Program-made: the position numbers and the translations under genes
The notes under the pieces: model-generated
The model's database searches: none
What the model was told of the DNA's origin: nothing
Seen by the model: the letters and a program-made list of their open reading frames with translations, nothing else
Virus record (IMG/VR): IMGVR_UViG_3300009314_000007
Span: 1 to 64,000 of that record
Origin: a virus
Length of the DNA stretch: 64,000 nt
Direction: 5' to 3' (one strand)
Shown: in pieces, positions 23,450 through 60,914 of the stretch
How positions within the stretch are numbered: the stretch's first letter is position 1
How the letters are laid out: each line of letters begins with the position of its first letter

Positions 23450-23854
23450 GTGGCAATAATCACGTACGCCCAGATACGGGAGAAGATGAACGGTGAGTCC
23501 TTTCCAATGACGCTCGTCGATAAGGACGAGGTTGCGGCCGTGGCAGAGGCGGTAAACCAGGGCATCGACTCGCACCTGGAGATCTGCAACTCCCCGGAGC
23601 GGGGAGACAGCTACGGACCCGTGGACACGATGGTTGGCGGCAAGGTGTTTGCTCGCAAGCTGGGCTGCGTCGTGTCGAAAGAGAGCTTCCCGACGCTGCT
23701 GCGGCGTCTTTGCGAGCTGAGAGACAAGGATAACGATGCCGCCGACTCGCTGTTGAGCAGCATCCTGGACTCCTTGGACTTCACGGAAGAAGAGACGTGT
23801 TGTGGTTGCTTTGACATCATTTCACCGGTAGACGAAGAGGAGAGCGATGTTTGA
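23450..23854 (+). CDS. Hypothetical protein (GTG start)
   Basis: 134 residues from a GTG with GGAGG 5 nt upstream. Helical with a C-terminal T-C-C-G-C motif and acidic end. It overlaps the alpha-CTD-like gene by 8 nt, so the two are probably translated together. Confidence 0.55.
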   Translation: MAIITYAQIREKMNGESFPMTLVDKDEVAAVAEAVNQGIDSHLEICNSPERGDSYGPVDTMVGGKVFARKLGCVVSKESFPTLLRRLCELRDKDNDAADSLLSSILDSLDFTEEETCCGCFDIISPVDEEESDV

Positions 23855-24302
23855 ATCCGATATGTTTGAATCCGATGAGGTCCTCGACCAATCAGTCAAG
23901 GAGTTGGGGTTGGGCTGCCGAGCAAGAAAGGCTCTGGTTCGACTTGGCATAGGAACCGTTCGGGAGCTGGTCGAACAGTCCGAGGAAGCGTTTGATTATT
24001 GTCGGAACTTCGGCAAGGTTTCTCTCAACGAAATTCGTGAGAGGCTTGGAGAGCGCGGATTGCACTTGAAGGGGGAGGAGATCTGCTTGCCTGGAGCCGC
24101 GGACTTGTCATCGCTCGCGACTTGGTGTCGTATCGCGGTTCACATGGACCCCGCTCAAGAGCTTGCTCGGAAACTGCAAGCCCTGGGAGTGACGGAGCCG
24201 CAGTTGCATGAAGCGCTCAAGGGGGAGGATCTTGGTACGATTCCTGAGCCTTTCAAGACGACCCTGTTCAACCACTTTCGAGATCTCACGAGAAAGAAGT
24301 AA
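23847..24302 (+). CDS. RNA polymerase alpha-CTD-like protein (first copy)
   Basis: 151 residues with GAGGAG upstream. Residues ~16-75 align without gaps to the helix-hairpin-helix C-terminal domain of bacterial RNA polymerase alpha: L-G-x-x-x-R-A-R-K-A-L-V-R-L-G-I-G-T-V-R-E-L-V then R-N-F-G-K-V-S-L-N-E-I-R-E-R-L-x-x-R-G-L. Of the E. coli residues that contact UP-element DNA, R265, L270, G296, S299 and E302 correspond to R25, L30, G56, S59 and E62; N268 is Lys and K298 is Val. There is no alpha N-terminal domain, and the C-terminal ~70 residues are a separate helical segment. It probably binds DNA or a partner of host alpha and alters promoter choice. The fold call is strong; the role is inference. 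Confidence 0.75.
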   Translation: MFESDMFESDEVLDQSVKELGLGCRARKALVRLGIGTVRELVEQSEEAFDYCRNFGKVSLNEIRERLGERGLHLKGEEICLPGAADLSSLATWCRIAVHMDPAQELARKLQALGVTEPQLHEALKGEDLGTIPEPFKTTLFNHFRDLTRKK

Positions 24303-26469: not shown

Positions 26470-26726
26470 CGAGGGAGGAGATCTGGGAAGTAGCGGACGT
26501 GCTGCTCTCGCACTGTGTGGGGGTGCAGGAGTTGCTCGACGACGGGGAAACTGAGGAACACATACTCGCCGACCCCGCGTATGGCGAGCCAGTATGGAGT
26601 GCGAGGTCTCCGCCCTCCTCTCTCAAGGTGCAGGGACTGGAAACGAGGCGCTTTTCTTGCAAGCACCCCAACAAGACGAATATAAGCAAGCAACGTACGG
26701 AGGACAATCCGCGTGACCAAGGATAA
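26376..26726 (+). CDS. Small acidic/helical protein
   Basis: 116 residues with AGGGAAG upstream. Residues ~1-70 are helical and acidic (A-E-T-L-A-E-E-F-A-E-R-T-A-G-M-T-R-E-E); the C-terminal third is low quality and overlaps the GTG of the next gene. Unrecognised. Confidence 0.45.
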   Translation: MCEEETKKGVSQAYIVAETLAEEFAERTAGMTREEIWEVADVLLSHCVGVQELLDDGETEEHILADPAYGEPVWSARSPPSSLKVQGLETRRFSCKHPNKTNISKQRTEDNPRDQG

Positions 26727-27339
26727 GATCCCGATGGGGAGAGTTCAGAAGTTTAGCCAGTGCTTCGTGGTGCTGGCTAGGGCAAACAAGCCCAATCGTA
26801 ACGGGGACATCTTCACGGAAGAAGCGCTAAGAACCATGGCATGGGACAACCGTGACAGTGGGCTCCTCTATTTTGAACACAAGCAGGAGTTGGTATGTCG
26901 TCAACACAAACTGCCGGAATCGCTGCTAAAAGAGTTGGGCCTTTCCGTGGAGTCGCCTTTGACCGCATCATTGCGTTCGACACGGAAAGACCGGGCCAAG
27001 AAGCGAGGCAGGAGCCGGGGGAAGGCGAAGCCAAAGCCCGAACCGAAACTGGAGTCGGAGCTGGAATTGGAGCCGGAAGAAAAGCTGGAGGAGAAGCCGG
27101 AGGAGAAGCCGGAGGAGAAGCCGGAGGAGAAGCCGGAGGAGAAGCCGGAGGAGAAGCCGGAGAAGAAGTCGAAAATGAAGGCGGAGATCGCCGCGGAATC
27201 GGCCAACGCGAAACAGAAGGCCAAGGACTTCCAGGCTCGGCTGGACGCGATGGGGGTGAAGGAATCCGGCGATTCCGAGTCGTCACCTACCAAGCCTACG
27301 ACGCCTGCGGACTTGTCGGAACCGAGCACAACGGCGTAG
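26713..27339 (+). CDS. Protein with (EKPE)n tract, 5' part of a two-frame locus
   Basis: 208 residues from a GTG with GGAGG upstream. Residues ~8-60 contain V-L-A-R-A-N-K-P-N-R-N-G-D-I-F-T-E-E-A-L-R, a pattern also seen at the start of prohead-protease and related phage proteins. Residues ~120-155 are Glu/Lys/Pro repeats. Codon third positions are typical of this genome up to about 27300. The genome-like codon pattern then passes to the -1 frame, described in the next entry. Confidence 0.5.
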   Translation: MTKDKIPMGRVQKFSQCFVVLARANKPNRNGDIFTEEALRTMAWDNRDSGLLYFEHKQELVCRQHKLPESLLKELGLSVESPLTASLRSTRKDRAKKRGRSRGKAKPKPEPKLESELELEPEEKLEEKPEEKPEEKPEEKPEEKPEEKPEKKSKMKAEIAAESANAKQKAKDFQARLDAMGVKESGDSESSPTKPTTPADLSEPSTTA

Positions 27340-27515
27340 CGATCCTCGACGAGGACAATGCGCAAGTCCTCTGCGACGACATCGCCCGCGTGGATAGCGG
27401 TTGGTACGGGATCAAACCCGCGCAGACCAAGGAGGCGGAACGAATCTGCCGGATGACCTGGGAGGAGTTTCGCAATAACGTTAATGGAAACCCGAGAGCG
27501 AGACAGGAGATATGA
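26895..27515 (+). CDS. Overlapping -1 frame ORF; 3' end looks like genuine protein
   Basis: 206 residues from an ATG with AGGAG at good spacing. Its first ~130 residues are Gly/Glu/Ala repeats that mirror the EKPE tract. From about 27283 to the stop the sequence (V-V-T-Y-Q-A-Y-D-A-C-G-L-V-G, then A-I-L-D-E-D-N-A-Q-V) has normal protein character and GC-rich third positions, while the other frame stops at 27339. No in-frame start lies in the last third. Either two genes overlap or a -1 frameshift makes one product. Confidence 0.4.
   Translation: MSSTQTAGIAAKRVGPFRGVAFDRIIAFDTERPGQEARQEPGEGEAKARTETGVGAGIGAGRKAGGEAGGEAGGEAGGEAGGEAGGEAGEEVENEGGDRRGIGQRETEGQGLPGSAGRDGGEGIRRFRVVTYQAYDACGLVGTEHNGVAILDEDNAQVLCDDIARVDSGWYGIKPAQTKEAERICRMTWEEFRNNVNGNPRARQEI
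27091..27162 (+). repeat. Six perfect 12-bp tandem repeats (GAGAAGCCGGAG)
   Basis: They encode EKPE in the 26713 frame and GEAG in the 26895 frame. A repeat like this can change copy number by slippage without breaking either frame. Confidence 0.95.
27473..27486. repeat. Dispersed palindrome copy, CAATAACGTTAATG
   Basis: One mismatch from CAATAACGTTATTG, located inside the 3' end of the -1 frame ORF, 25 nt before the next start codon. Confidence 0.5.
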
Positions 27516-27970
27516 CATCACCAACGACGATAAAGGCGGGCGATCTCTTTGTCACTCGCAACTTGACCGAGGTGGGGAACACCTCGCCCGGTTATTGGAA
27601 CCACGTGGCCATCTACGCTGGTGATGGTATTGTGGTAGAGGCCCAGACCGCTCCAGACATGGTCATTGGAGCTGATTTGGAGGAGTTCTGGAATCGCTAC
27701 CCGCAGATCCGTGTCGTGCGGGGACCCGGTACGCCAGCGCAACAGGAGGCTCTGGCAGCCAAGGCCCTGGAACAGCGAGGCACCCCGTATCGGCGGGTGG
27801 GGAGCCTGCACTGGTTCTTCACACGAAGAAAGAGCCGCGGCGAGAATTGCGTAAGCACCGCCCGCCGGGCGTTCAAGACCGCGATGGGCTACGACCCGAG
27901 ATGGCGCAAGCCTGACGACGTGGCCCGGGACAGGCGGCTTGTGTTGGTCACTGCCAAGGACCCGGGTTAG
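27512..27970 (+). CDS. NlpC/P60-like (YiiX-type) cysteine peptidase or hydrolase
   Basis: 152 residues with AGGAG just before the ATG. A permuted papain-like arrangement is visible: G-D-L-F-V-T-R near residue 10, W-N-H-V-A-I-Y-A-G near residues 29-37 supplying the His, and E-N-C-V-S-T-A near residue 112 supplying the catalytic Cys. This matches the YiiX/YebB and poxvirus G6-like group of the NlpC/P60 superfamily. It may cleave peptidoglycan stem peptides during entry or lysis, or act on an amide bond elsewhere. It converges with the minus-strand gene at its 3' end (4-nt overlap). Confidence 0.65.
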   Translation: MTSPTTIKAGDLFVTRNLTEVGNTSPGYWNHVAIYAGDGIVVEAQTAPDMVIGADLEEFWNRYPQIRVVRGPGTPAQQEALAAKALEQRGTPYRRVGSLHWFFTRRKSRGENCVSTARRAFKTAMGYDPRWRKPDDVARDRRLVLVTAKDPG

Positions 27971-29220
27971 GCTCCGATGAGTCGAGACCCAGTAACACCT
28001 GTCGGCTCCGCGGTGGTAACACCGTCCCGCGGTGGCGGCAATTTCTGGAGGAATGCGTAGGTCTTGGCGAGCTTTTCCGCGTCATCCTCAGTCACCCCGC
28101 GAGCCGTCGCGTCCTTTCGGAAGGGCGGCTGCCCGGCTTCAAGCATAAGCCGGTCCAGGGTCTGGGCATCGGGAACTGGCAGGGTGGAGGCCACCTCCGC
28201 CATCTTTTCCGGATCTATGCGAAGACCTGTTGTCACCGCCTGCGCGATTTCGCTACCTAGCACTTCGCGTACGGCGGTCGGCGACAGGGAACCGAACTGG
28301 TCTCGGTCGTAAATAGAGCCAGTCACCATGCAGCAGGCGTTCTTGACGAAGTCCTCGGCGGCCTTGAGTGTGCCTCCGAAGATCACGTCTTCGGGACGCG
28401 GGATCGCCTTGGCGTACTTGCCAACCACCCCGTGTTCACGGTCGAACTGGTCCACGGTGGTGCAGAGCTGAATGGAGCTGGGCAGATCCTCGGCCAGCAT
28501 CGGGTTCGTCTCGATCTCCGAGGCTAGCTTGAGCATGCCCTCGGCGACTGCGGGTTTGACCTTGTGTCCGACTTTCACGCGATCCCGGAGCATCTGGGCG
28601 ACCTTGCCGGGGTCGTACACACCTCGACCCGCGATCTTCTCCAGCATGTCCTCCAGGTCCTCTCCGACCCCGGCCCCGAATTGCGCGGCCTTGTCGAGGA
28701 TCTTCTGGGCGATCCGCTGCCGGTCTGCGTAGTAGAGCTGGTCTCGGTACTGGCCGAGCCAGTGTGCTGCGGCCTTGACCTCCATGGTGTTGCGAAGCGG
28801 GTATCGACGTTCTTTTTGTCCACCCCCGGCCATCACCCAGGCGAAGGCAGAGTCGGGAAGCCCCGCGGTGCTGTCTGCGTGCAGTGAGGCGTGTTTCTCC
28901 TTGAGCGCCACCACGTCGGGCCGGATGCCCCAGTGATCGGCGTACATGTCGAGGCGCTTGCCGATCCACCCGGCGATTTTCGGGTGGATCTCCGCACATT
29001 TCTCGATGAAAAACAGGCATGAGACCAGCGTAGCCGCCTTGGTGTGGCAAGGAAACTTGCGGGTCCGCACGTCGCCGTAGGCGTTGGAGGGCAGCCCTTG
29101 TGGGTTGCACACTTGCTCCGTGTCCGCGGTTTTGACATACTCTGGGAGAGGATAGAGCTTTGCGAACATGTGAAAGTCGCAGTGACTCTGGTCGTCAACC
29201 TGATCCAAAATGGTAGCCAT
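27967..29220 (-). CDS. Unrecognised 417-residue protein beside the terminase
   Basis: Start at 29220, with GAGGGAG on the minus strand 5-9 nt upstream; the longer frame to 29274 has no ribosome site. Largely helical. Contains a Cys-containing segment (P-C-H-T-K-A-A-T-L-V-S-C-L-F-F) and G-R-G-V-Y-D-P-G-K-V-A-Q-M-L-R near residue 210. It is one of only two minus-strand genes, the other being the large terminase. That suggests a packaging or head-related role, but no family was recognised. Its ATG overlaps the plus-strand ATG at 29219 within a GCCATGGC palindrome. Confidence 0.6.
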   Translation of the reverse strand: MATILDQVDDQSHCDFHMFAKLYPLPEYVKTADTEQVCNPQGLPSNAYGDVRTRKFPCHTKAATLVSCLFFIEKCAEIHPKIAGWIGKRLDMYADHWGIRPDVVALKEKHASLHADSTAGLPDSAFAWVMAGGGQKERRYPLRNTMEVKAAAHWLGQYRDQLYYADRQRIAQKILDKAAQFGAGVGEDLEDMLEKIAGRGVYDPGKVAQMLRDRVKVGHKVKPAVAEGMLKLASEIETNPMLAEDLPSSIQLCTTVDQFDREHGVVGKYAKAIPRPEDVIFGGTLKAAEDFVKNACCMVTGSIYDRDQFGSLSPTAVREVLGSEIAQAVTTGLRIDPEKMAEVASTLPVPDAQTLDRLMLEAGQPPFRKDATARGVTEDDAEKLAKTYAFLQKLPPPRDGVTTAEPTGVTGSRLIGA

Positions 29221-31966
29221 GGCACTCCCTCGCTGTACTGTGAATGCGTCCTTACAATGGAACCAAGTTTTCAAGACGCTTGGAATCCGTTACTCCGCCG
29301 ATATTCTCCCTGCGCGGGCCGCGTGCCCTTTCTGTCGTCAGAATCGAATGTTGGTATTCGAGGATCATGTCAGCAAGGGCCAGTGGTTTTCCTGTCAACA
29401 CTGTTTGCAATCGGGCGACATAGTGCAACTGGTGGCGAGGCACTGGGAGCTTTCGGAGGAATCGGCCATCGTCAAGTTGTCGAAGATGGGTTTCTCCATC
29501 GACCCTGCCGAAAGCAATCTCCAGCGGTATCACGCTGTCACCAGTCGCTGTAACCGTTTTGCCGAGTTCTGGCAGCAGGTCCGTCAGAACCTCATTCATG
29601 GTAGCACATCCGCGATCAGTCTGGTACACGACCTGAAATTAGCGTGCGGCGTCTCGCAAGATCGGTGGAATCGGGGCCTCGGGCAACTTCTGGGCGGGGT
29701 CTCGCATAAAGAGGCAGAACAGGCCTACCATCCGCATTCCGAGAACCAGACCCGCAATTCCTCTGAACACCGGCTTTTCCGGGGAGGGAAATGGGGCGAC
29801 GTGCTCGTTTTTCCGTACTGGCAGTTGCCGGGAAAGCTCTCGGGGTTTCTATTTGTGGGTCGGGAGGGGGACCCGGAGAAAGACTTCGTATTTCGAGCCA
29901 TTCACCACAACGGATCGTCGGCCTCGTCGTCGTTCGGCAACGAGGCCGGGCTGCTTCTGCACCCCCAGGTCCCGCAAGTCGCGGTCAGCTACGGCAACCA
30001 TGTGGTGGCTATCGACGACCCGGTGCTGTCCATTCGGATGCAGGCCCGGAACTTCGAGGCGTCCGGCTGGCCGTTGCCCCTGGTGTGCTGCCATGCGGAA
30101 GACAATCGCCGGGAGCGAGCGCAGACGCTGCATGGCTGGAAGCAGTTCATGGGCATTCGCCCGGTGATCTGGATGCCGCGCTACGACCGCACGCTTGTCG
30201 AGCAGGCGATTGTCGCTGGAGCCAGGATCTCTCTCATGCGGCCCGAAGACACGTCCGACGCGGGTCTCTGGCGGTACATCACCAACTACCCGCCGCAAGA
30301 GCTGCTTCGCCGGATCATTCGGCACTCCAAGCCCTGGCCACAGGCCATGACACAACTGGTCCAGGAGCTGGACGATGGGGCTATTGAAGACCTGTTCTAC
30401 TATTTGGAGATGGATAAGCTGGAGCCCGCTCGCGTGCTAGAGCGCTGCGATCCAAAAGTCCGCAAGCACTTTCGGACCTTGTCGGCCAGCAGGCCCGTTC
30501 GTCGCGTTGTCCCTCTTTCCCCGACAGTGCTCGTTGCCGAGATCGACGACTCCTGGTTCCTGGAGGCCCGCCAAGGGCACTCGCCACTCGTGTCGGATGC
30601 GATCATCCGAATCCGCGATACCATTCATCAGAAGACGACGGGCTACACGTACTATCGTGGCGAGATCCTGCATCAGGGCAAGGCTTTCGAGTTCTGCGAA
30701 TCGAAAGAGGCGCTAAAGAAGGACACCTGGAACTGGCTGGAGGACTTCCTGGACGCGAGGGGGCATGTCCTACGAGGAAACTCCCGGCATAGCAAGGACC
30801 TGATCGACATTGCGATCCAGCTCCACTGCCCTGAGCACAGCTACGGCGTGGACTCGGTAGGCTGGGATCTCCGCAACAGTCGATTGCTGCTTCCAAACTA
30901 CTATCTTACAGCGGGCGGCGATGTTCATTCGTACGACGCACAGATACCGACGCCCGACACGCCCGGCCGGAACTTGCTCCGCCCCTGCGATTTGTCCCCT
31001 GCGGAACTGGATGCTACCGCGGAAGATCCAGACATGGCGGGCCCCTTGTGGGCTTGTTTCATTGCCGCCATGGCCAACATCGTGGCTCCTGCGTATCGAC
31101 AACCCACCTCGGGCATAGGTCTGGTGGGCGCCGGGGCGGAGCTGGCCGGGCAGGGTATCGCGGATGCTATGGGCTGCACGAACTACCAGTTCTCCGGTCG
31201 GTATGGAAAAGACCAGGCGACCGAAGCCGAGCGTCGGCACGGCTGGCCCATCTTCGTGCAGTTGCCCACGGCTTCGATTCATAAGAAGGCCATGAACGAG
31301 TGGTTGAATATCGGCGGGACGCATCGCCACAACTGCTTGGTGTCGCTCCCCTGGTTCGTGTCCCGAGCGAAGATCCTTTTTGGTGGTTGGCATATCGTTC
31401 GGGCAGATCAGCCGATTATCTTCTCGGAGACGACCGTTGATGCGTTCAGCAAGCTCACGTCTGCGTACCTGGCCGATCTGGCCAAGCGTCACTTCAAGTT
31501 GTCGCACTGGGGGTCCGGCAGGAATCCGCCCTGGCTGATCTCCGTGGCGAAAGACATTCGCCAGTTTGTTGAACCGCAACTGCCGGGCTGGTTGGATACG
31601 GTTTCTCCCAAACAATGGATCGCTCACGAGACCCGCAAGGTGACAGCGGACCCGCTGGGCTCCATGCTGGGTCATCTGGCTTCTGAGGGCAAACTCTTGG
31701 TTGGGTCCGCCCGCAGCGACGTGCGGCGACCCTCGCTGCTGCCGCTGGATGAGGGGATGTTGTTGGACAAGCTCGATCTACTCAAGCTGCTCGATAAGGA
31801 GAAGGTGACTCTCATCAATCCCGCGAGAATCACGTCGGCCCTGGCTAACTCCGGCGCATTGGTGGGCGTTCACGACCGGGGTTGGATCTTGCAGCCCGCG
31901 TGGTGGGACAAGCAGCTCGCGAAGTTCACAGCCAGGGAGCAGCACCGGTTGAAGATTGTTCGTTAG
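29219..31966 (+). CDS. Large CHC2-type zinc-finger protein with helicase-like C-terminal half
   Basis: 915 residues from the ATG at 29219 (29210 is an alternative; neither has an SD site). Residues ~35-65 carry C-P-F-C and C-Q-H-C, the CHC2-type zinc-binding arrangement of primases. A TOPRIM-like region follows (V-F-P-Y-W-Q-L-P-G-K-L-S-G-F-L-F-V-G, later V-V-A-I-D-D-P-V-L-S). Near residue 635, T-S-G-I-G-L-V-G-A-G-A-E-L-A-G-Q sits where a DUF927-type helicase would have a P-loop, but the invariant Lys is missing. It may be an ancient primase-helicase that lost ATPase activity, or a specialised DNA-binding protein. It lies between two minus-strand genes and overlaps the terminase stop by 4 nt. 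Confidence 0.55.
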   Translation: MALPRCTVNASLQWNQVFKTLGIRYSADILPARAACPFCRQNRMLVFEDHVSKGQWFSCQHCLQSGDIVQLVARHWELSEESAIVKLSKMGFSIDPAESNLQRYHAVTSRCNRFAEFWQQVRQNLIHGSTSAISLVHDLKLACGVSQDRWNRGLGQLLGGVSHKEAEQAYHPHSENQTRNSSEHRLFRGGKWGDVLVFPYWQLPGKLSGFLFVGREGDPEKDFVFRAIHHNGSSASSSFGNEAGLLLHPQVPQVAVSYGNHVVAIDDPVLSIRMQARNFEASGWPLPLVCCHAEDNRRERAQTLHGWKQFMGIRPVIWMPRYDRTLVEQAIVAGARISLMRPEDTSDAGLWRYITNYPPQELLRRIIRHSKPWPQAMTQLVQELDDGAIEDLFYYLEMDKLEPARVLERCDPKVRKHFRTLSASRPVRRVVPLSPTVLVAEIDDSWFLEARQGHSPLVSDAIIRIRDTIHQKTTGYTYYRGEILHQGKAFEFCESKEALKKDTWNWLEDFLDARGHVLRGNSRHSKDLIDIAIQLHCPEHSYGVDSVGWDLRNSRLLLPNYYLTAGGDVHSYDAQIPTPDTPGRNLLRPCDLSPAELDATAEDPDMAGPLWACFIAAMANIVAPAYRQPTSGIGLVGAGAELAGQGIADAMGCTNYQFSGRYGKDQATEAERRHGWPIFVQLPTASIHKKAMNEWLNIGGTHRHNCLVSLPWFVSRAKILFGGWHIVRADQPIIFSETTVDAFSKLTSAYLADLAKRHFKLSHWGSGRNPPWLISVAKDIRQFVEPQLPGWLDTVSPKQWIAHETRKVTADPLGSMLGHLASEGKLLVGSARSDVRRPSLLPLDEGMLLDKLDLLKLLDKEKVTLINPARITSALANSGALVGVHDRGWILQPAWWDKQLAKFTAREQHRLKIVR

Positions 31967-40023: not shown

Positions 40024-40968
40024 ATGACATCGCTGGTGAAATCGGGCTTTCGGAAGATCGAATTGACCCGGGTGATGCAAGGTCCGGCCGCTTCGGCTTG
40101 TCGTTACGCTCTGGCCCCTCTTACTAGGGGGGTGGATGTGGAGGTTTCGGACGATAGCAAGGTGCGAGCCGCGTCCCTCGGGCTGATAAACACGTGGCGG
40201 GCCCGTCTGCTGGTTCTTCAGCAGGCAGGCTGGGAGAGTATTCGGGAGCCGGAGCAACTCAGTCGGCTGGGGAATTGCCCTCCGGCTGGTGTTGCGGAAA
40301 CGAAGGGCGGGACGTTCTCCTGTCGCAAGTATCGGATCTGCCCGTTTTGCTGGTGTCGGCAGTACGTGTTGGAGGTGTTCGCTCGGATCTATGCGATCTC
40401 GTCGCGGTTCGAGGCGACCCGCCAGCCATTTGACCTGGTGGAAGTTCGGACCGAGCGAAAGTACCCGATCAAGAGCTACTTGCTGGCGGCTCCGCTTGAC
40501 TGGATCAAGCACTGCAAGTCCGGCTACTATCGAGAGTACATGCCGGACGCTTACGGGGGTTTCGTGCTTTGCACCATCGAGCCCCCCGATTACTCCGCTA
40601 GGGATCGGAATTACCGGCTCTTGCAGCGAGTGCTGGCGCTTGTCCCCAAGCGAGCGCCGACGCCGCCTGTCGAGCTGGCTCGGATGGACAGCGACGAGCT
40701 TCAGCAGGAGTCTCGCAAGGTGCGTCGGACGAGCAATCCAGCCTTGGCGGCAATCACGGCCGCGGTAGGTCGGACGTGCATCTATCCCAAGCAGTTGATG
40801 CAGGGCAATGCCAAGGAGACGGTGGATATTCTGGATGCCCAGGCGATGACCTGGAAGTCGGAGTCGGAGGGGCGAGCGCGGAAGCAGTTCCCGGTCCGGA
40901 CGAGTGAGTTTTACGGAGTTTTACGTCAGCGGCGGGCGCCGACGATACCAGAGGACGGGATGCCCTAG
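40024..40968 (+). CDS. Unrecognised protein with C-P-F-C motif (possible Rep-like)
   Basis: 314 residues with GGAGG upstream. Near residues 98-112, T-F-S-C-R-K-Y-R-I-C-P-F-C-W-C-R-Q is reminiscent of the Cys motif in plasmid rolling-circle Rep proteins, but no HUH motif or catalytic Tyr pair was found, so this remains a resemblance only. The remainder is helical and ends basic. It starts a transcription unit that includes the second alpha-CTD-like gene. Confidence 0.45.
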   Translation: MTSLVKSGFRKIELTRVMQGPAASACRYALAPLTRGVDVEVSDDSKVRAASLGLINTWRARLLVLQQAGWESIREPEQLSRLGNCPPAGVAETKGGTFSCRKYRICPFCWCRQYVLEVFARIYAISSRFEATRQPFDLVEVRTERKYPIKSYLLAAPLDWIKHCKSGYYREYMPDAYGGFVLCTIEPPDYSARDRNYRLLQRVLALVPKRAPTPPVELARMDSDELQQESRKVRRTSNPALAAITAAVGRTCIYPKQLMQGNAKETVDILDAQAMTWKSESEGRARKQFPVRTSEFYGVLRQRRAPTIPEDGMP

Positions 40969-40984
40969 TCGAACGGAGGAGCGT

Positions 40985-41335
40985 ATGCTAACCGAGCGGA
41001 AACTGGCGGAGCTGATAAAGACCCCACTGGCCGATACGGCGTTGAGTCTGCGGACGGTCAATACCTTGGAGGATCATGGGATGCTTTATCTACATGAGCT
41101 GCTTCAATGTTGTGGGCGGCCCAGGAAGGCGTGCGACGATTGCAGGTGGTTCGTAGACGACCGTAGGACTTGCGGTCGAGAGACCAAGTTGATAGAGATT
41201 CCCAATTTTGGAACCAAGACGCTTGCCGAGGTGTTCAAGGTCCTGGAGGATCTGGGATTGCATCGCAGCAAGGAACACCCCACGCTGAAGAAGAAGAGAA
41301 GAAGGAGGAGAAAGAAACGTGTCCGACGCAAGTGA
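40985..41335 (+). CDS. RNA polymerase alpha-CTD-like protein with Cys-rich insertion (second copy)
   Basis: 116 residues with GGAGGAG upstream. Residues ~19-40 (L-S-L-R-T-V-N-T-L-E-D-H-G-M-L-Y-L-H-E-L-L) and ~69-92 (I-P-N-F-G-T-K-T-L-A-E-V-F-K-V-L-E-D-L-G-L) are the two halves of an alpha C-terminal domain. E. coli DNA-contact residues R265, N268, L270, G296, K298, S299 and E302 correspond to R23, N26, L28, G76, K78, T79 and E82, so the set is intact apart from Ser to Thr. Between the halves lie ~25 residues with C-C, C-x2-C and a further Cys, a probable zinc knuckle that host alpha lacks. The C-terminus is a Lys/Arg tail. It probably binds UP-element-like DNA or competes with host alpha. Confidence 0.8.
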   Translation: MLTERKLAELIKTPLADTALSLRTVNTLEDHGMLYLHELLQCCGRPRKACDDCRWFVDDRRTCGRETKLIEIPNFGTKTLAEVFKVLEDLGLHRSKEHPTLKKKRRRRRKKRVRRK

Positions 41336-41687
41336 GTCGCCGACCTATTACATCCTGGTCAAATTTGTTGGGCAGGGTAGGCGGAAGAAGCTGGAGTGGT
41401 ACAAGCCGCGAAACGCGATAGTGCCGCTCGTGTCTATCGAGGCGCATGTGGTACGCTTCGCGAGGATGTGTACCAAGATGCGATTGTACAAGCTCAGCGA
41501 GGACTTGCGGGACGCTGCACGGATTGGGGCGGGCGATGCCACGTTCCAGTATCCGCTAACGTTCCGGCTTACCCAGGCGCAGACTCGACTGGTGAAGCGA
41601 GCGCTGAAGTGTAAGGTGAGTCACTGGCTGAAACCTTCGCCGAAGGGCCTGGAGGGTCGTGGTGAACTACCAGGCGATGAGCACTGA
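41319..41687 (+). CDS. Small basic hypothetical protein (GTG start)
   Basis: 122 residues from a GTG preceded by AGGAGGAG. Basic, with Y-Y-I-L-V-K-F-V-G-Q-G-R-R-K-K-L-E-W-Y at the N-terminus. Overlaps the alpha-CTD-like gene by 17 nt, so the two products may act together. Confidence 0.5.
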   Translation: MSDASESPTYYILVKFVGQGRRKKLEWYKPRNAIVPLVSIEAHVVRFARMCTKMRLYKLSEDLRDAARIGAGDATFQYPLTFRLTQAQTRLVKRALKCKVSHWLKPSPKGLEGRGELPGDEH

Positions 41688-56341: not shown

Positions 56342-57468
56342 CAATTGAGGTGCTCAACCCGGCTCTTTACGGCGGGCTGGTCCGTCGTTATGGGCGGGAA
56401 TCTATTGAGATCGTCGCACCTGGCGAGCGCATCGAATGGTCGGTGCGTAAAACGCGGCCGGGCGAGGCGGGAGAGCTGAAGCGCGAGGTGGAGCATTCCG
56501 GTGAGGAGTATCGGATGCGGTGTCCGTTTTGTAAGGATCACCGTCCGAGACTCTATGTCAATCACCGGTTTGGTGTGGAGGACCCGCGAACGGGCTTGCT
56601 CAACTTGTGGCTCGCGCAGTGCTTTAACGAGCGGTGCTTTGAGGATTACGAGAACTGCGAGCTGTTTTGGGATTCCGTTTACTCGATTTCACGGGACATG
56701 GCGGGGACCATACGGATTGGAGAGGGGAAGAAGGCGTCGAGCGAGGTTCGGGAGGTGGCGCCACCAGGTCCAATGTGGCGACTTGACGAGTTGGCAAGAA
56801 ACCATCCAAACCACCACGCGGTGCAGTACCTGGCGGGCAGGCATTTCGATCCCGGTAAGATTGGGAGGCTTTGGGGTGCCGCGTACTGTCCGCGGGCCCA
56901 TGTGTACAACATGGCGTCCGACAAGATCATCATCCCGATTTACTGGCGGGGCGAGATGGTTGGCTGGCAGGCTCGATACATCGGAGATGACGTGAAGGGC
57001 GTGCCGTTCAATAAGGCAGGCGTGGCCAAGTATTGGTCGTCCCCGGGCTTCAAGCGGAGTCGGGTGGCTTACAATTTTTGGAGAGCAGTGCAACACCCCA
57101 CTGCGGTTATCGTGGAGGGCATGACCGATGTATGGAGCATGGGCATGCAGTCGATGGGTGTATTTGGAAAGACAATGAGTGCCCCGCTTCGGCGATTGTT
57201 GTTGCAGGAGATGTCGGATAGGCATCGGCCGGAGGAGGCGGTGATCGTCATCTTGCTGGACCCCAAGAAGGATAAGAAGGACAAGGTTCACCACATTGAG
57301 AGACTGTATGGACAGCTTGCGAATCAGGGAGCGGCTGTCCGCGTGCTGAAAGTGTATCTTCCCCCGGAAGTGGACCCGGGGAGTAGCGAGCGTGCGTGGT
57401 TGCGAGACTACATTCGCGAGAAAGCAGACGAGGTAGGTTACCCCGTCAGTTTTAGGAAACCGACATGA
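56338..57468 (+). CDS. DNA primase (CHC2 zinc finger plus TOPRIM)
   Basis: 376 residues. The zinc finger C-P-F-C near residues 62-65 with C-F-N-E-R-C at 93-98 is followed by the catalytic region. TOPRIM motifs: V-I-V-E-G-M-T-D-V near residue 258 and V-I-V-I-L-L-D-P-K near 302. It makes RNA primers. It is shorter than bacterial DnaG because the C-terminal helicase-interaction domain appears to be lacking, and it is gene-coupled to the helicase and polymerase. Confidence 0.85.
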   Translation: MTIEVLNPALYGGLVRRYGRESIEIVAPGERIEWSVRKTRPGEAGELKREVEHSGEEYRMRCPFCKDHRPRLYVNHRFGVEDPRTGLLNLWLAQCFNERCFEDYENCELFWDSVYSISRDMAGTIRIGEGKKASSEVREVAPPGPMWRLDELARNHPNHHAVQYLAGRHFDPGKIGRLWGAAYCPRAHVYNMASDKIIIPIYWRGEMVGWQARYIGDDVKGVPFNKAGVAKYWSSPGFKRSRVAYNFWRAVQHPTAVIVEGMTDVWSMGMQSMGVFGKTMSAPLRRLLLQEMSDRHRPEEAVIVILLDPKKDKKDKVHHIERLYGQLANQGAAVRVLKVYLPPEVDPGSSERAWLRDYIREKADEVGYPVSFRKPT

Positions 57469-60400
57469 CAAAAGAACGCAGAAAGCTGATTCGCAAAGGA
57501 GGCCCCGGGCTTGCCGCGAAGACGAAAGAGCCGGTCACCACTAACGTTATTGGAGAGGCTGACAAGAAGCCGAAGAAGAAAGCGGTGTTGGCGAAACGTA
57601 GGGACCAGCCAGCTCCGACGAGGTCCCGGCAACCCGCCGGAAATCTGTTTCCTTTGAACGCTCCGGGGATGCCGCTACCTGGCCCGGACTTGTTGGAGTA
57701 CGCCGCGGCGCTTGGCGGAACTCACGAGATAGTCGGGAAGAGCCGAAGCGCTCGCCTGACGCAGGCGGGTCAGACGCTGCCAGCCCTATTCAGGAAGATC
57801 CTTTATTCGTTTGGCGACATAGCCGTCCCGTTTAAGCACAAAGGTAAGCGTCACGACTTGTCGGTGGTAAGTGGCCACGTGTGGGGAGATCCGTTTGGAG
57901 AGTGCCGCGGGCCTCGTCAGGCGGACGTGATGGTGATCGCCAAGATGCTTGGTGACGAAGAGAACAATCAGGGAAGGAACATGATCGGCAACTCCGGGCA
58001 GTTATTTCTGGAGACCTGTCGAGAGCTGGGACTCCCTCGGATTTCTCGCTGGTACGTTACCAACCTGATGAAGACCCTGCATCCGGAGGCGGATTCCGGG
58101 GGCACGAGATTGACTGCGGCGATGATCAAGGAGTGGCTACCGTTTCTGCACCAGGAGATCCGTATCGTGCAGCCCAAGTACATTCTGTGCTTGGGGGCTG
58201 ATGCGAGCGCGGGTCTGTTGGAGTACGAGGGCGGGTTCAAGAGAAAGGACAAGTTCCGAGCCTCGATCAGTAACATGCAGGGCCGCATTGTCGAGTGGGA
58301 GTACCCGATCAGTCGCAAGGATGAGGGCAAGATCCAGTACAAGCAGGCACTGGTCATGTCCATCACGCATCCCGCCGCCGTGCTGCACGCCCCTGAGCAG
58401 GAGGACGTGTACGTCAACGGCGTAGCCAGGTTCGGGCAGATGATCAAGGGAATGCGGTGGGACAAGGAGGAGGAGGGTCTTGATCACAGGACGATTACTT
58501 CGCTCGTCGAGTTGAAAGAGCTGTACCACGAGATCAGAGCGGACTGCGAGGATAACTTGCTCGGGATCGACGCCGAGTGGCACGGGGATCACCCGCAGAA
58601 CAAGGGCAGCTACCTGCGCACTATACAGATTTCCTGGAAGCACAAGGCCGCGGTCTGCATCAGGCTACGTGCCCCAGGCGGTGCCTGGGCTTTCGCGGGG
58701 TGCGGCCGAAAGACTGTCGCGAAATGGGTTAAGAGGATTTGTAAGGGAAGGAGGCTCGCAGGGCACTTCTTCTCTGCCGACCTCGAATGGCTGATCGACT
58801 TCGGTATTGATCTTCGCGAGGAGTTCATGGTCCCGGACACTTGGACGGAGTACATGAAGCGGTGGCGGCGTAAGAAGGGTTGCGGGTTCGATACTGGTCT
58901 AGCCGCACACGGCATAGCAGAGACCGACGATTTCAGCCTAACATCACTCACGCTGCGACATACGACTGCTCCTCGTTACGATGTAGCGCTGGTGAAGTGG
59001 GTTGCGGATTACTGCAATGAGCACAAGCTGAAGAAGGAGGAGCTGGAGGGTTATGGGGAGTGTCCTGACGATGTGCTGATTCCCTACGGCATCTACGATG
59101 CCGACGTGACTCGGCGAATCGCGGTGAAGTTCGCTAGGAGGTTATTCAAGGATCGTTTCAACAACAACTGCTGGGAAGCGTTCTGGATGTCCATGCGGGC
59201 CCAACCGGCAGCTTTGGAGATGAATATGAGCGGCGTGCAGATCGACCGGGAGCGACTTGATCGTCTCACGGAGACCTACATGTCGGCCAAGGCCAAGCTG
59301 GAGAACACAGTGCGCACTTGGGCTCGGTGGCCCGATATGAATCTGAACTCGGTGTTTCATATTCGCGAGTTTCTCTACGGGGAGCGGTACAATGGGCACG
59401 AACACCCTGAGGGTACACCTCCCATTAGGAAGCGTCCGGCAGACGGCAGGTCCCTGAAGCTCAATCCGATCCTCACTACGGATAAGCGGCCCATGCGGTG
59501 GTCCGAGGTGGTGCAGAAGGGATTGGAAGACCAGAAGACGCCGAGCACGGACAAGATGTGCCTGGCCATCTTGGCGCAGGACAATCAGGCGGTCCGGAAA
59601 TGGCACCCTACGAAGCTGGATTACCGTACGTACGATTTCAGCAAGCAGGTCACCTGGGTTCGGGATTACCGGTTCATCAGTCAGGTGCTCAAGAGCATGC
59701 TGAGGACTCCGAAGATCGAGAAGCTGCCGGACAAGACCGAGGCGTTCTTGAAGAAAGACGACTACTACGTCTACCCTGGCGGGCTCCCCGCCGCGGTTTG
59801 CGACGATAGCCGGGTGCGAACCCACTTCTATCAAACCAAGGAGACCGGTCGATGGGCCTCGGCCCGTCCGCCGCTGCAAAACCTGACTAAGCGAAGGGAG
59901 GTGGATTACAAGCGGATTCTGGGTCCAGATTACAAGTGGGCACTTAGGACTATCATTACGGCTCGGCCGGGGCACTTGCTTCTGGAGGCGGATATTACCG
60001 GCGCCGAGCTGGCGGGCATGGCGATTATGTCTGGCGACAAGAGGATGATCGAGCACGCGCAGAGAAACGTGCTGGCGGAAGACGATCCCAATTACTACGA
60101 CATCCACAGCCACGTTGCCGTGCTGGCGTTCCGCTTGGACTGTGAGCCCACCAAGGGCGGTCTGGAATTGATTGGGATGAAGCACATGCGGCTCGTGGCC
60201 AAGAGTGTGATCTTCGGTATCGCTTACGGGCGGGGAGCCAAGGCCATCGCGTTGGCTGCGAAGGAGGAGGGAGTCAATATCACGGTCGAGGAAGCGCAGC
60301 GGGTGATCGACACGATCTTCCGGATGTACCCGAGACTGGTGCCGTTCTTCGAGGCTTGTCGTGCTCGCTCCAGAGATCCTCGGTGGATCTGTGGTTGTCT

Positions 60401-60914
60401 TGGTCGTTTTCGTCGTTTCCCGGTTGCCCGAGAATGGGTAGTCCAGGGCGACTTCGAGCGACAGGCGATGAACTTCCCGATGCAGAACATGGTGGCAGAT
60501 GTAATGAGCAGGGTTGTGGATCACCTGTATCATTATCGAGAAGAATACCCGGACGTGACCTATCGCATGGTGGCGCAGATTCACGACGCGGTGTTGTTGG
60601 AGGTTCCGTACGCGCATGTGTCGCGTGTGATCGACGAAGTGATTCCCGAGTGCATGGTCAATCGCGTACCGATCTACCCGTGTACGCTGGACGGAATGCC
60701 GACAGGTAAGGGCCCCTACTATTTCGGTGCGGACATCGACCCGTATCATCGGTGGGGGCAGGATATGGCTCCGGATGAGTGCATGAAAATTGGACTCGAT
60801 CCGAAGTACGCGCACTGGACGCAGACCGCGAATGGTTATCTGCATCCAGAGAAGAAAGACAAGATTTGGGTTGGGGACATCCATGGAGGAGAACTTGTGT
60901 CTCTGGCGCCCTAA
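57465..60914 (+). CDS. polA: Family A DNA polymerase fused to a UDG family 4-like domain
   Basis: 1149 residues. After a Lys-rich N-terminus, residues ~140-310 are uracil-DNA-glycosylase-family-4-like (M-I-G-N-S-G-Q-L-F ... I-T-H-P-A-A), as in the SPO1 polymerase. The Fe-S cysteines of active family 4 enzymes are not seen. The 3'-5' exonuclease has G-I-D-A-E-W (~364), H-F-F-S-A-D-L-E-W (~432) and Y-D-A-D (~543). The polymerase has motif A E-A-D-I-T-G-A-E-L (~840), motif B A-K-S-V-I-F-G-I-A-Y-G (~912) with Lys, Phe and Tyr at the positions of E. coli K758, F762 and Y766, and motif C Q-I-H-D-A-V-L-L-E-V (~1037). All catalytic Asp residues are present. It is the replicative polymerase. Confidence 0.92.
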   Translation: MTKERRKLIRKGGPGLAAKTKEPVTTNVIGEADKKPKKKAVLAKRRDQPAPTRSRQPAGNLFPLNAPGMPLPGPDLLEYAAALGGTHEIVGKSRSARLTQAGQTLPALFRKILYSFGDIAVPFKHKGKRHDLSVVSGHVWGDPFGECRGPRQADVMVIAKMLGDEENNQGRNMIGNSGQLFLETCRELGLPRISRWYVTNLMKTLHPEADSGGTRLTAAMIKEWLPFLHQEIRIVQPKYILCLGADASAGLLEYEGGFKRKDKFRASISNMQGRIVEWEYPISRKDEGKIQYKQALVMSITHPAAVLHAPEQEDVYVNGVARFGQMIKGMRWDKEEEGLDHRTITSLVELKELYHEIRADCEDNLLGIDAEWHGDHPQNKGSYLRTIQISWKHKAAVCIRLRAPGGAWAFAGCGRKTVAKWVKRICKGRRLAGHFFSADLEWLIDFGIDLREEFMVPDTWTEYMKRWRRKKGCGFDTGLAAHGIAETDDFSLTSLTLRHTTAPRYDVALVKWVADYCNEHKLKKEELEGYGECPDDVLIPYGIYDADVTRRIAVKFARRLFKDRFNNNCWEAFWMSMRAQPAALEMNMSGVQIDRERLDRLTETYMSAKAKLENTVRTWARWPDMNLNSVFHIREFLYGERYNGHEHPEGTPPIRKRPADGRSLKLNPILTTDKRPMRWSEVVQKGLEDQKTPSTDKMCLAILAQDNQAVRKWHPTKLDYRTYDFSKQVTWVRDYRFISQVLKSMLRTPKIEKLPDKTEAFLKKDDYYVYPGGLPAAVCDDSRVRTHFYQTKETGRWASARPPLQNLTKRREVDYKRILGPDYKWALRTIITARPGHLLLEADITGAELAGMAIMSGDKRMIEHAQRNVLAEDDPNYYDIHSHVAVLAFRLDCEPTKGGLELIGMKHMRLVAKSVIFGIAYGRGAKAIALAAKEEGVNITVEEAQRVIDTIFRMYPRLVPFFEACRARSRDPRWICGCLGRFRRFPVAREWVVQGDFERQAMNFPMQNMVADVMSRVVDHLYHYREEYPDVTYRMVAQIHDAVLLEVPYAHVSRVIDEVIPECMVNRVPIYPCTLDGMPTGKGPYYFGADIDPYHRWGQDMAPDECMKIGLDPKYAHWTQTANGYLHPEKKDKIWVGDIHGGELVSLAP
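57539..57552. repeat. Dispersed palindrome copy, CACTAACGTTATTG
   Basis: Reverse complement of the copies at 16411 and 34873, inside the polymerase gene near its start. Confidence 0.55.

What the first reader, a model, noticed from the sequence alone, without database searches (positions are those of the whole stretch)
40985..41335. Stand-alone alpha-CTD-like protein with an intact DNA-contact set and a Cys-rich insertion
The two halves align to the alpha C-terminal domain. E. coli R265, N268, G296, K298 and E302 are all matched and S299 is Thr. About 25 residues with four to five Cys are inserted between the halves, and a Lys/Arg tail follows. Host alpha lacks this insertion. A phage protein built this way could bind UP-element DNA and attract or block host RNA polymerase.
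Basis: partly seen in the sequence, partly recalled or inferred. Interest (0 to 1): 0.85.

Follow-up and report, generated by a model that had tools for sequence, protein, structure and literature searches.

The report
Phage stand-alone alpha-CTD with cysteine insert
A bacterial virus, probably infecting planctomycetes, carries a small free-standing copy of the DNA-gripping tail domain of RNA polymerase with an unusual cysteine-rich loop inserted in it; free-standing copies turn out to be fairly common in viruses, but this loop was found nowhere else we looked.

Summary
The 116-aa ORF at 40985-41335 is a stand-alone RNA polymerase alpha-CTD: Pfam RNA_pol_A_CTD, E 3e-8, above cut-off; PDB sequence matches are all alpha subunits, and the 50 listed Foldseek matches are alpha subunits or RNA polymerase complexes. 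R265, N268, N294, G296, K298 and E302 are matched; S299 is Thr. Twenty-four residues with five Cys replace E. coli R284-T285 (net +22); 14 of the last 20 residues are Lys/Arg. Stand-alone alpha-CTDs are widespread: a strict signature found about 80 viral contigs, none with this insert. The gene is syntenic, beside an unnamed 'CPFC' gene, in a collinear phage record that lacks the insert; the pair recurs on a Gimesia contig. All six confirmed relatives among 84,980 prokaryote genomes are Planctomycetota. A second alpha-CTD lies at 23847-24302. Most likely it is a minor-groove-binding transcription accessory factor of a planctomycete phage, its activator-contact surface rebuilt by a probable metal-binding knuckle. 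DNA binding, metal binding and effect on polymerase are untested. New variant of a known kind; interest moderate.

The parts
40985..41335 (+). Stand-alone alpha-CTD-like protein, 116 aa (stop codon included in coordinates)
   Evidence: ORF; Pfam RNA_pol_A_CTD E 3e-8; AF2 core pLDDT above 90 in most of residues 11-40 and 71-90; listed Foldseek matches are alpha subunits or RNA polymerase complexes
40975..40981 (+). Ribosome-binding-like sequence GGAGGAG
   Evidence: sequence
40985..41107 (+). First part of the alpha-CTD (residues 1-41; R23=R265, N26=N268, D17=D259)
   Evidence: alignments
41108..41179 (+). Cys-rich insert, residues 42-65, CCGRPRKACDDCRWFVDDRRTCGR; replaces E. coli R284-T285 beside the 287 determinant
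   Evidence: profile break; absent from about 80 viral alpha-CTDs and from planctomycete RpoA; low pLDDT
41180..41263 (+). Second part of the alpha-CTD (residues 66-93; N74, G76, K78, T79, E82)
41288..41332 (+). Lys/Arg-rich C-terminal tail (residues 102-116)
   Evidence: sequence; composition
40024..40968 (+). Neighbour gene, 314 aa, 'CPFC' family: conserved NCP...C-x5-CP(F/W)C-x2-R; no Pfam or NCBIfam match, no PHROG match better than E 0.38
   Evidence: homologues beside alpha-CTD genes in G003 and on a Gimesia contig, and in the same slot of G002 without an alpha-CTD
41319..41687 (+). Downstream ORF overlapping the end of the alpha-CTD gene; no family
23847..24302 (+). Second stand-alone alpha-CTD-like protein of the same phage, 151 aa, no insert
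   Evidence: Pfam RNA_pol_A_CTD 55.2 bits; groups with the second CTD of planctomycete two-CTD proteins

Best explanation
This is a phage-encoded, free-standing alpha-CTD of a planctomycete-associated subfamily. It cannot assemble into RNA polymerase because it has no alpha-NTD. It most likely binds A/T-rich minor groove near promoters with the conserved alpha-CTD contact set, helped by the Lys/Arg tail, and so helps the phage steer host transcription by competing with or adding to the host alpha-CTD. The Cys insert probably folds as a small metal-stabilised knuckle (likely zinc) and replaces the surface by which alpha-CTD normally meets activators, giving it a different protein partner or an extra DNA contact. 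Shown: family, fold, residues, insert position, synteny, relatives. Inferred: DNA binding, metal binding, partner, effect on transcription and its direction.
For: Family and fold; the subfamily profile finds PDB alpha-CTDs at 3.8e-17. Contact set matched. The gene is syntenic in a collinear phage record, G003, beside a CPFC homologue, so it is kept. In G003 it lies after three sigma-70 region-4-like genes and a dCTP deaminase gene, a transcription-linked setting; the window's own record encodes a region-4 protein at 77951-78706. Beyond the window no predicted ORF exceeds 540 aa, so no beta- or beta-prime-sized subunit is seen there, consistent with use of host polymerase. Planctomycete link: six of six confirmed genome relatives, clade support 0.999. 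The insert is coding-like (third-position GC 0.67 against a gene mean of 0.71) and has no copy elsewhere in the record.
Against: No DNA-binding, metal or RNA polymerase data. Acidic sigma-contact positions 258 and 261 are Ala; only 259 is kept. The syntenic homologue in G003 has Arg-Ala at positions 298-299, so the full contact set is not conserved along the lineage. The collinear phage G002 has the CPFC gene without a neighbouring alpha-CTD, so the factor is dispensable for some relatives. The insert is low-confidence in the model, no relative conserves its Cys, and Cys clusters occur in 7 of 137 genes of this record. The planctomycete host is inferred from a domain of about 75 columns.
Confidence: 0.5

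Rival explanations
1. It is a DNA-binding partner of the CPFC protein in replication or another non-transcription process; the alpha-CTD fold is used only as a minor-groove reader.
For: The adjacency of alpha-CTD and CPFC genes recurs in G000, G003 and a Gimesia contig that shares no other gene with these phages at the threshold used. The CPFC protein has a conserved C-x5-CP(F/W)C site, by recollection similar to zinc sites of rolling-circle Rep proteins (lead only).
Against: The CPFC protein has no Pfam or PDB relative and its model is poor. In G003 the pair follows three sigma-region-4-like genes. G002 keeps CPFC without an adjacent alpha-CTD.
Confidence: 0.2
2. Non-specific nucleic-acid binder: the basic tail dominates and the alpha-CTD has drifted to a generic HhH role.
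For: Most basic tail in the record; basic C-terminal ends also on the Gimesia and G003 relatives.
Against: Residues that matter for alpha-CTD DNA contacts are all kept here; no other HhH family is matched.
Confidence: 0.15
3. Decoy: it soaks up host activators or sigma that normally grip alpha-CTD, without needing DNA.
For: Resemblance to host alpha-CTD.
Against: The insert sits at the 287 activator-contact determinant and acidic positions 258 and 261 are lost, while the DNA face is intact: the reverse of what a protein decoy would keep.
Confidence: 0.1
4. The insert is an assembly or sequence artefact.
For: Seen in a single metagenomic contig.
Against: In frame, no stop, third-position GC like the genes around it, no copy elsewhere in the record.
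Confidence: 0.05

Closest known systems
RNA polymerase alpha subunit C-terminal domain (Pfam PF03118; E. coli RpoA about 250-329)
   Same: Fold, domain order, R265/N268/N294/G296/K298/E302
   Different: No alpha-NTD; 24-residue Cys-rich insert in place of R284-T285; Lys/Arg tail; acidic 258 and 261 lost
Stand-alone alpha-CTD proteins of Pirellula and related planctomycetes (L131, L133-L136)
   Same: Small stand-alone proteins; K298-T299; Glu at 259 without acid at 261; same clade
   Different: No insert; cellular contigs; no CPFC homologue detected in the fetched flanks
Syntenic stand-alone alpha-CTD of related phage IMGVR_UViG_3300047160_017115 (L008:1399-1752)
   Same: Collinear position, CPFC neighbour, LRxVNTLE motif
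   Different: No insert; Arg-Ala at 298-299; basic region at the N-terminus; three sigma-region-4-like genes nearby
Planctomycete two-CTD proteins (about 430-530 aa)
   Same: Carry alpha-CTDs outside RpoA; the phage's second alpha-CTD (23847-24302) groups with their second domain
   Different: Two CTDs in a larger protein; position 298 mostly Thr

Membership tests
RNA_pol_A_CTD domain family (PF03118) | Profile match above the curated cut-off | tested here: met
   33.7 bits against 23.8
RNA_pol_A_CTD domain family (PF03118) | alpha-CTD fold | tested here: met
   AF2 core high confidence; the 50 listed Foldseek matches are alpha subunits or polymerase complexes, TM normalised to target up to 0.87, E-values only 0.003-0.3; the model used an alignment of alpha-CTDs, so it is not independent of the sequence match
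RNA_pol_A_CTD domain family (PF03118) | Minor-groove and backbone contact residues | tested here: met
   R265, N268, N294, G296, K298, E302 identical; S299 is Thr
RNA_pol_A_CTD domain family (PF03118) | Contiguous domain without insert (usual, not strictly defining) | tested here: not met
   24 residues replace two; none of the surveyed viral or planctomycete alpha-CTDs has this
RNA polymerase alpha subunit (RpoA equivalog) | alpha-NTD and equivalog score | tested here: not met
   116 aa; TIGR02027 24.5 bits against cut-off 227.8
UP-element-binding protein | Binds A/T-rich UP DNA | not testable with these tools
   needs EMSA or footprinting
Phage factor acting on host RNA polymerase | Contacts or alters host RNA polymerase | not testable with these tools
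   only genomic context
Zinc knuckle | Four metal ligands conserved among relatives | tested here: inconclusive
   five Cys, C-C-x6-C-x2-C-x9-C; no relative with the insert found

The most novel reading that the evidence does not exclude
A phage has turned the polymerase's own alpha-CTD into a metal-bearing, free-standing promoter-binding factor whose knuckle replaces the activator-contact surface, letting a phage partner (the CPFC protein or a sigma-region-4-like protein) bridge it to host RNA polymerase: a split, trans-acting alpha-CTD.
Probability: 0.15. Interest if true: 0.8.

Novelty: new variant of a known kind. Interest (0 to 1): 0.45.

Why it matters
If it works as proposed, phages use detached copies of the polymerase alpha-CTD as trans-acting promoter factors. 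The roughly 80 viral contigs with such genes suggest a general and largely undescribed strategy, and the insert would show how the activator-contact surface can be exchanged. It also gives a host clue (Planctomycetota) for a phage lineage without close isolated relatives in the collections searched.

Tried and rejected
Single-sequence search for close relatives in IMG/VR found none and the phage collection gave only weak hits. Subfamily searches of IMG/VR gave only L129 and the known G003 locus, neither with the insert. A search of 392 planctomycete genomes with the whole protein gave two marginal hits with in-frame stops, not used. A structure for CPFC failed (mean pLDDT 44), so it was not compared with libraries; profile searches of Pfam and PDB with CPFC were empty or at chance level. 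A first gene comparison used the wrong sequence for the window by mistake and was repeated. No paper on stand-alone phage alpha-CTDs was found in the open-access library; that library is incomplete. K298 in the viral survey is forced by the search pattern and was not used as evidence. Considered and rejected: unrelated HhH protein (no other HhH family matched); full-length RpoA (no alpha-NTD).

Full report
OBSERVATION. The ORF at 40985-41335 is real: ATG start, GGAGGAG ribosome-binding-like sequence, close spacing after the CPFC gene and overlap with the next gene. Its only Pfam match is RNA_pol_A_CTD, 33.7 bits, E 3e-8, in two stretches. phmmer against PDB finds only RNA polymerase alpha chains, with the two parts at residues about 16-41 and 66-93. 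A profile built from other phage alpha-CTDs, leaving this one out, finds it with one clean break. E. coli Q283 corresponds to Q41 and E286 to E66, so residues 42-65 replace R284-T285: 24 residues, net +22, with Cys at 42, 43, 50, 53 and 63. The tail has 14 Lys/Arg in the last 20 residues, the most basic C-terminus of the record.

FOLD. AlphaFold2 with 37 related sequences gives a confident core and a low-confidence insert and tail. The 50 listed Foldseek matches are alpha subunits or RNA polymerase complexes; E-values are modest (0.003 to 0.3), probably because of the insert and tail, but TM-scores normalised to isolated alpha-CTDs reach 0.87. The model was helped by an alignment of alpha-CTDs and is not fully independent of the sequence match. 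A profile of the subfamily finds PDB alpha-CTDs at 3.8e-17.

HOW UNUSUAL IS IT. One strict DNA signature for PN(F/L)GxK(S/T) found 82 stretches of viral DNA, nearly all in ORFs of about 66-265 aa, shorter than RpoA. The distance from R265 to P293 is 28-31 residues in most and about 40 at most (L069, L121, extra residues after the first helix), against 50 in the window protein. Free-standing alpha-CTDs in viruses are therefore a common kind; this insert was not seen again. PHROGs has no alpha-CTD family for them (two members matched one unrelated family weakly), they are rare in isolated phages (e.g. Ruegeria phage vB_RpoS-V16 and Morganella phage Mecenats66), and no paper on them was found in the open-access library searched.

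SYNTENY. The window lies in a 107-kb viral record. Terminase and polymerase searches gave three related IMG/VR contigs. Records G000, G002 and G003 are collinear over many genes. In G003 the homologous alpha-CTD (blastp E 8e-11) lies in the same slot, beside a homologue of the window's neighbour 40024-40968 (E 2e-14), here called CPFC after its conserved motif. The order of the two genes is swapped. G002 has CPFC in that slot without an adjacent alpha-CTD; its only alpha-CTD-like match is weak and far away. The pair also occurs on a Gimesia MAG contig that shares no other gene with these phages at the threshold used; there the alpha-CTD frame has no evident ATG/GTG/TTG start upstream of the domain, so it may be decayed. 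CPFC is otherwise rare in planctomycetes (2 of 294 genomes, one of them that Gimesia genome).

HOST AND ORIGIN. A search of 84,980 species genomes with motifs shared by the two phage proteins confirmed six relatives, all Planctomycetota. In a tree of 75 columns the window protein, G003, L129, the Gimesia protein and the Pirellula-type stand-alone proteins form one clade, support 0.999, apart from planctomycete RpoA and from the other phage alpha-CTDs. The phage's second alpha-CTD (23847-24302) instead groups with the second CTD of a two-CTD protein found alongside RpoA in most planctomycete genomes sampled. Position 298 is Thr in nearly all planctomycete RpoA and two-CTD domains but Lys in the window protein and the Pirellula-type proteins. 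A planctomycete host is the best reading; the tree is short and the host is inferred.

MECHANISM. Without the alpha-NTD the protein cannot enter polymerase (established knowledge of RNA polymerase assembly). The DNA face is intact, the sigma-facing acidic patch is reduced (Ala, Asp, Ala at 258, 259, 261) and the insert sits at the 287 determinant, the surface by which E. coli alpha-CTD meets CRP (PMC12531629, describes that determinant and notes that it is fully conserved only in Gammaproteobacteria). This pattern fits a promoter-DNA binder with an altered protein contact better than a decoy. The setting in G003, after three sigma-region-4-like genes, points to transcription; the window's record has one region-4 protein 37 kb away. 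A metal-binding knuckle is plausible from five Cys in C-C-x6-C-x2-C-x9-C, but no relative with the insert was found to test conservation, and 7 of 137 genes of this record have equally dense Cys. Whether transcription is raised or lowered is unknown.

VERDICT. Observation confirmed; interpretation partly supported; a new variant (Cys-rich insert, basic tail) of a known and, in viruses, commoner-than-expected kind.

Noticed in passing
window 23847-24302: Second stand-alone alpha-CTD in the same phage, 55 bits, with N268 to Lys and K298 to Val; groups with the second CTD of planctomycete two-CTD proteins.
   Followed up: partly
L021:6645-9443 (G003 26645-29443): Three consecutive sigma-70 region-4-like genes (282, 300, 337 aa) just before a dCTP deaminase gene and the alpha-CTD gene.
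   Followed up: partly
L137-L166 (Planctomycetota genomes): Most sampled planctomycete genomes have three alpha-CTD matches: one in RpoA and two in a separate protein of about 430-530 aa; RpoA there mostly has Thr at position 298.
   Followed up: partly
window 40024-40968; L008:1962-2735; L027:10218-11087; L132:5716-6489: CPFC family: conserved NCP...C-x5-CP(F/W)C-x2-R protein without any Pfam or PDB match, in the same slot of three collinear phages and on a Gimesia contig.
   Followed up: partly
window 57465-60914: Uracil-DNA glycosylase domain fused to a family A DNA polymerase in one 1149-aa protein.
   Followed up: no
loci L047-L126: About 80 viral contigs with small stand-alone alpha-CTD ORFs, a largely unnamed phage protein kind.
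   Followed up: partly
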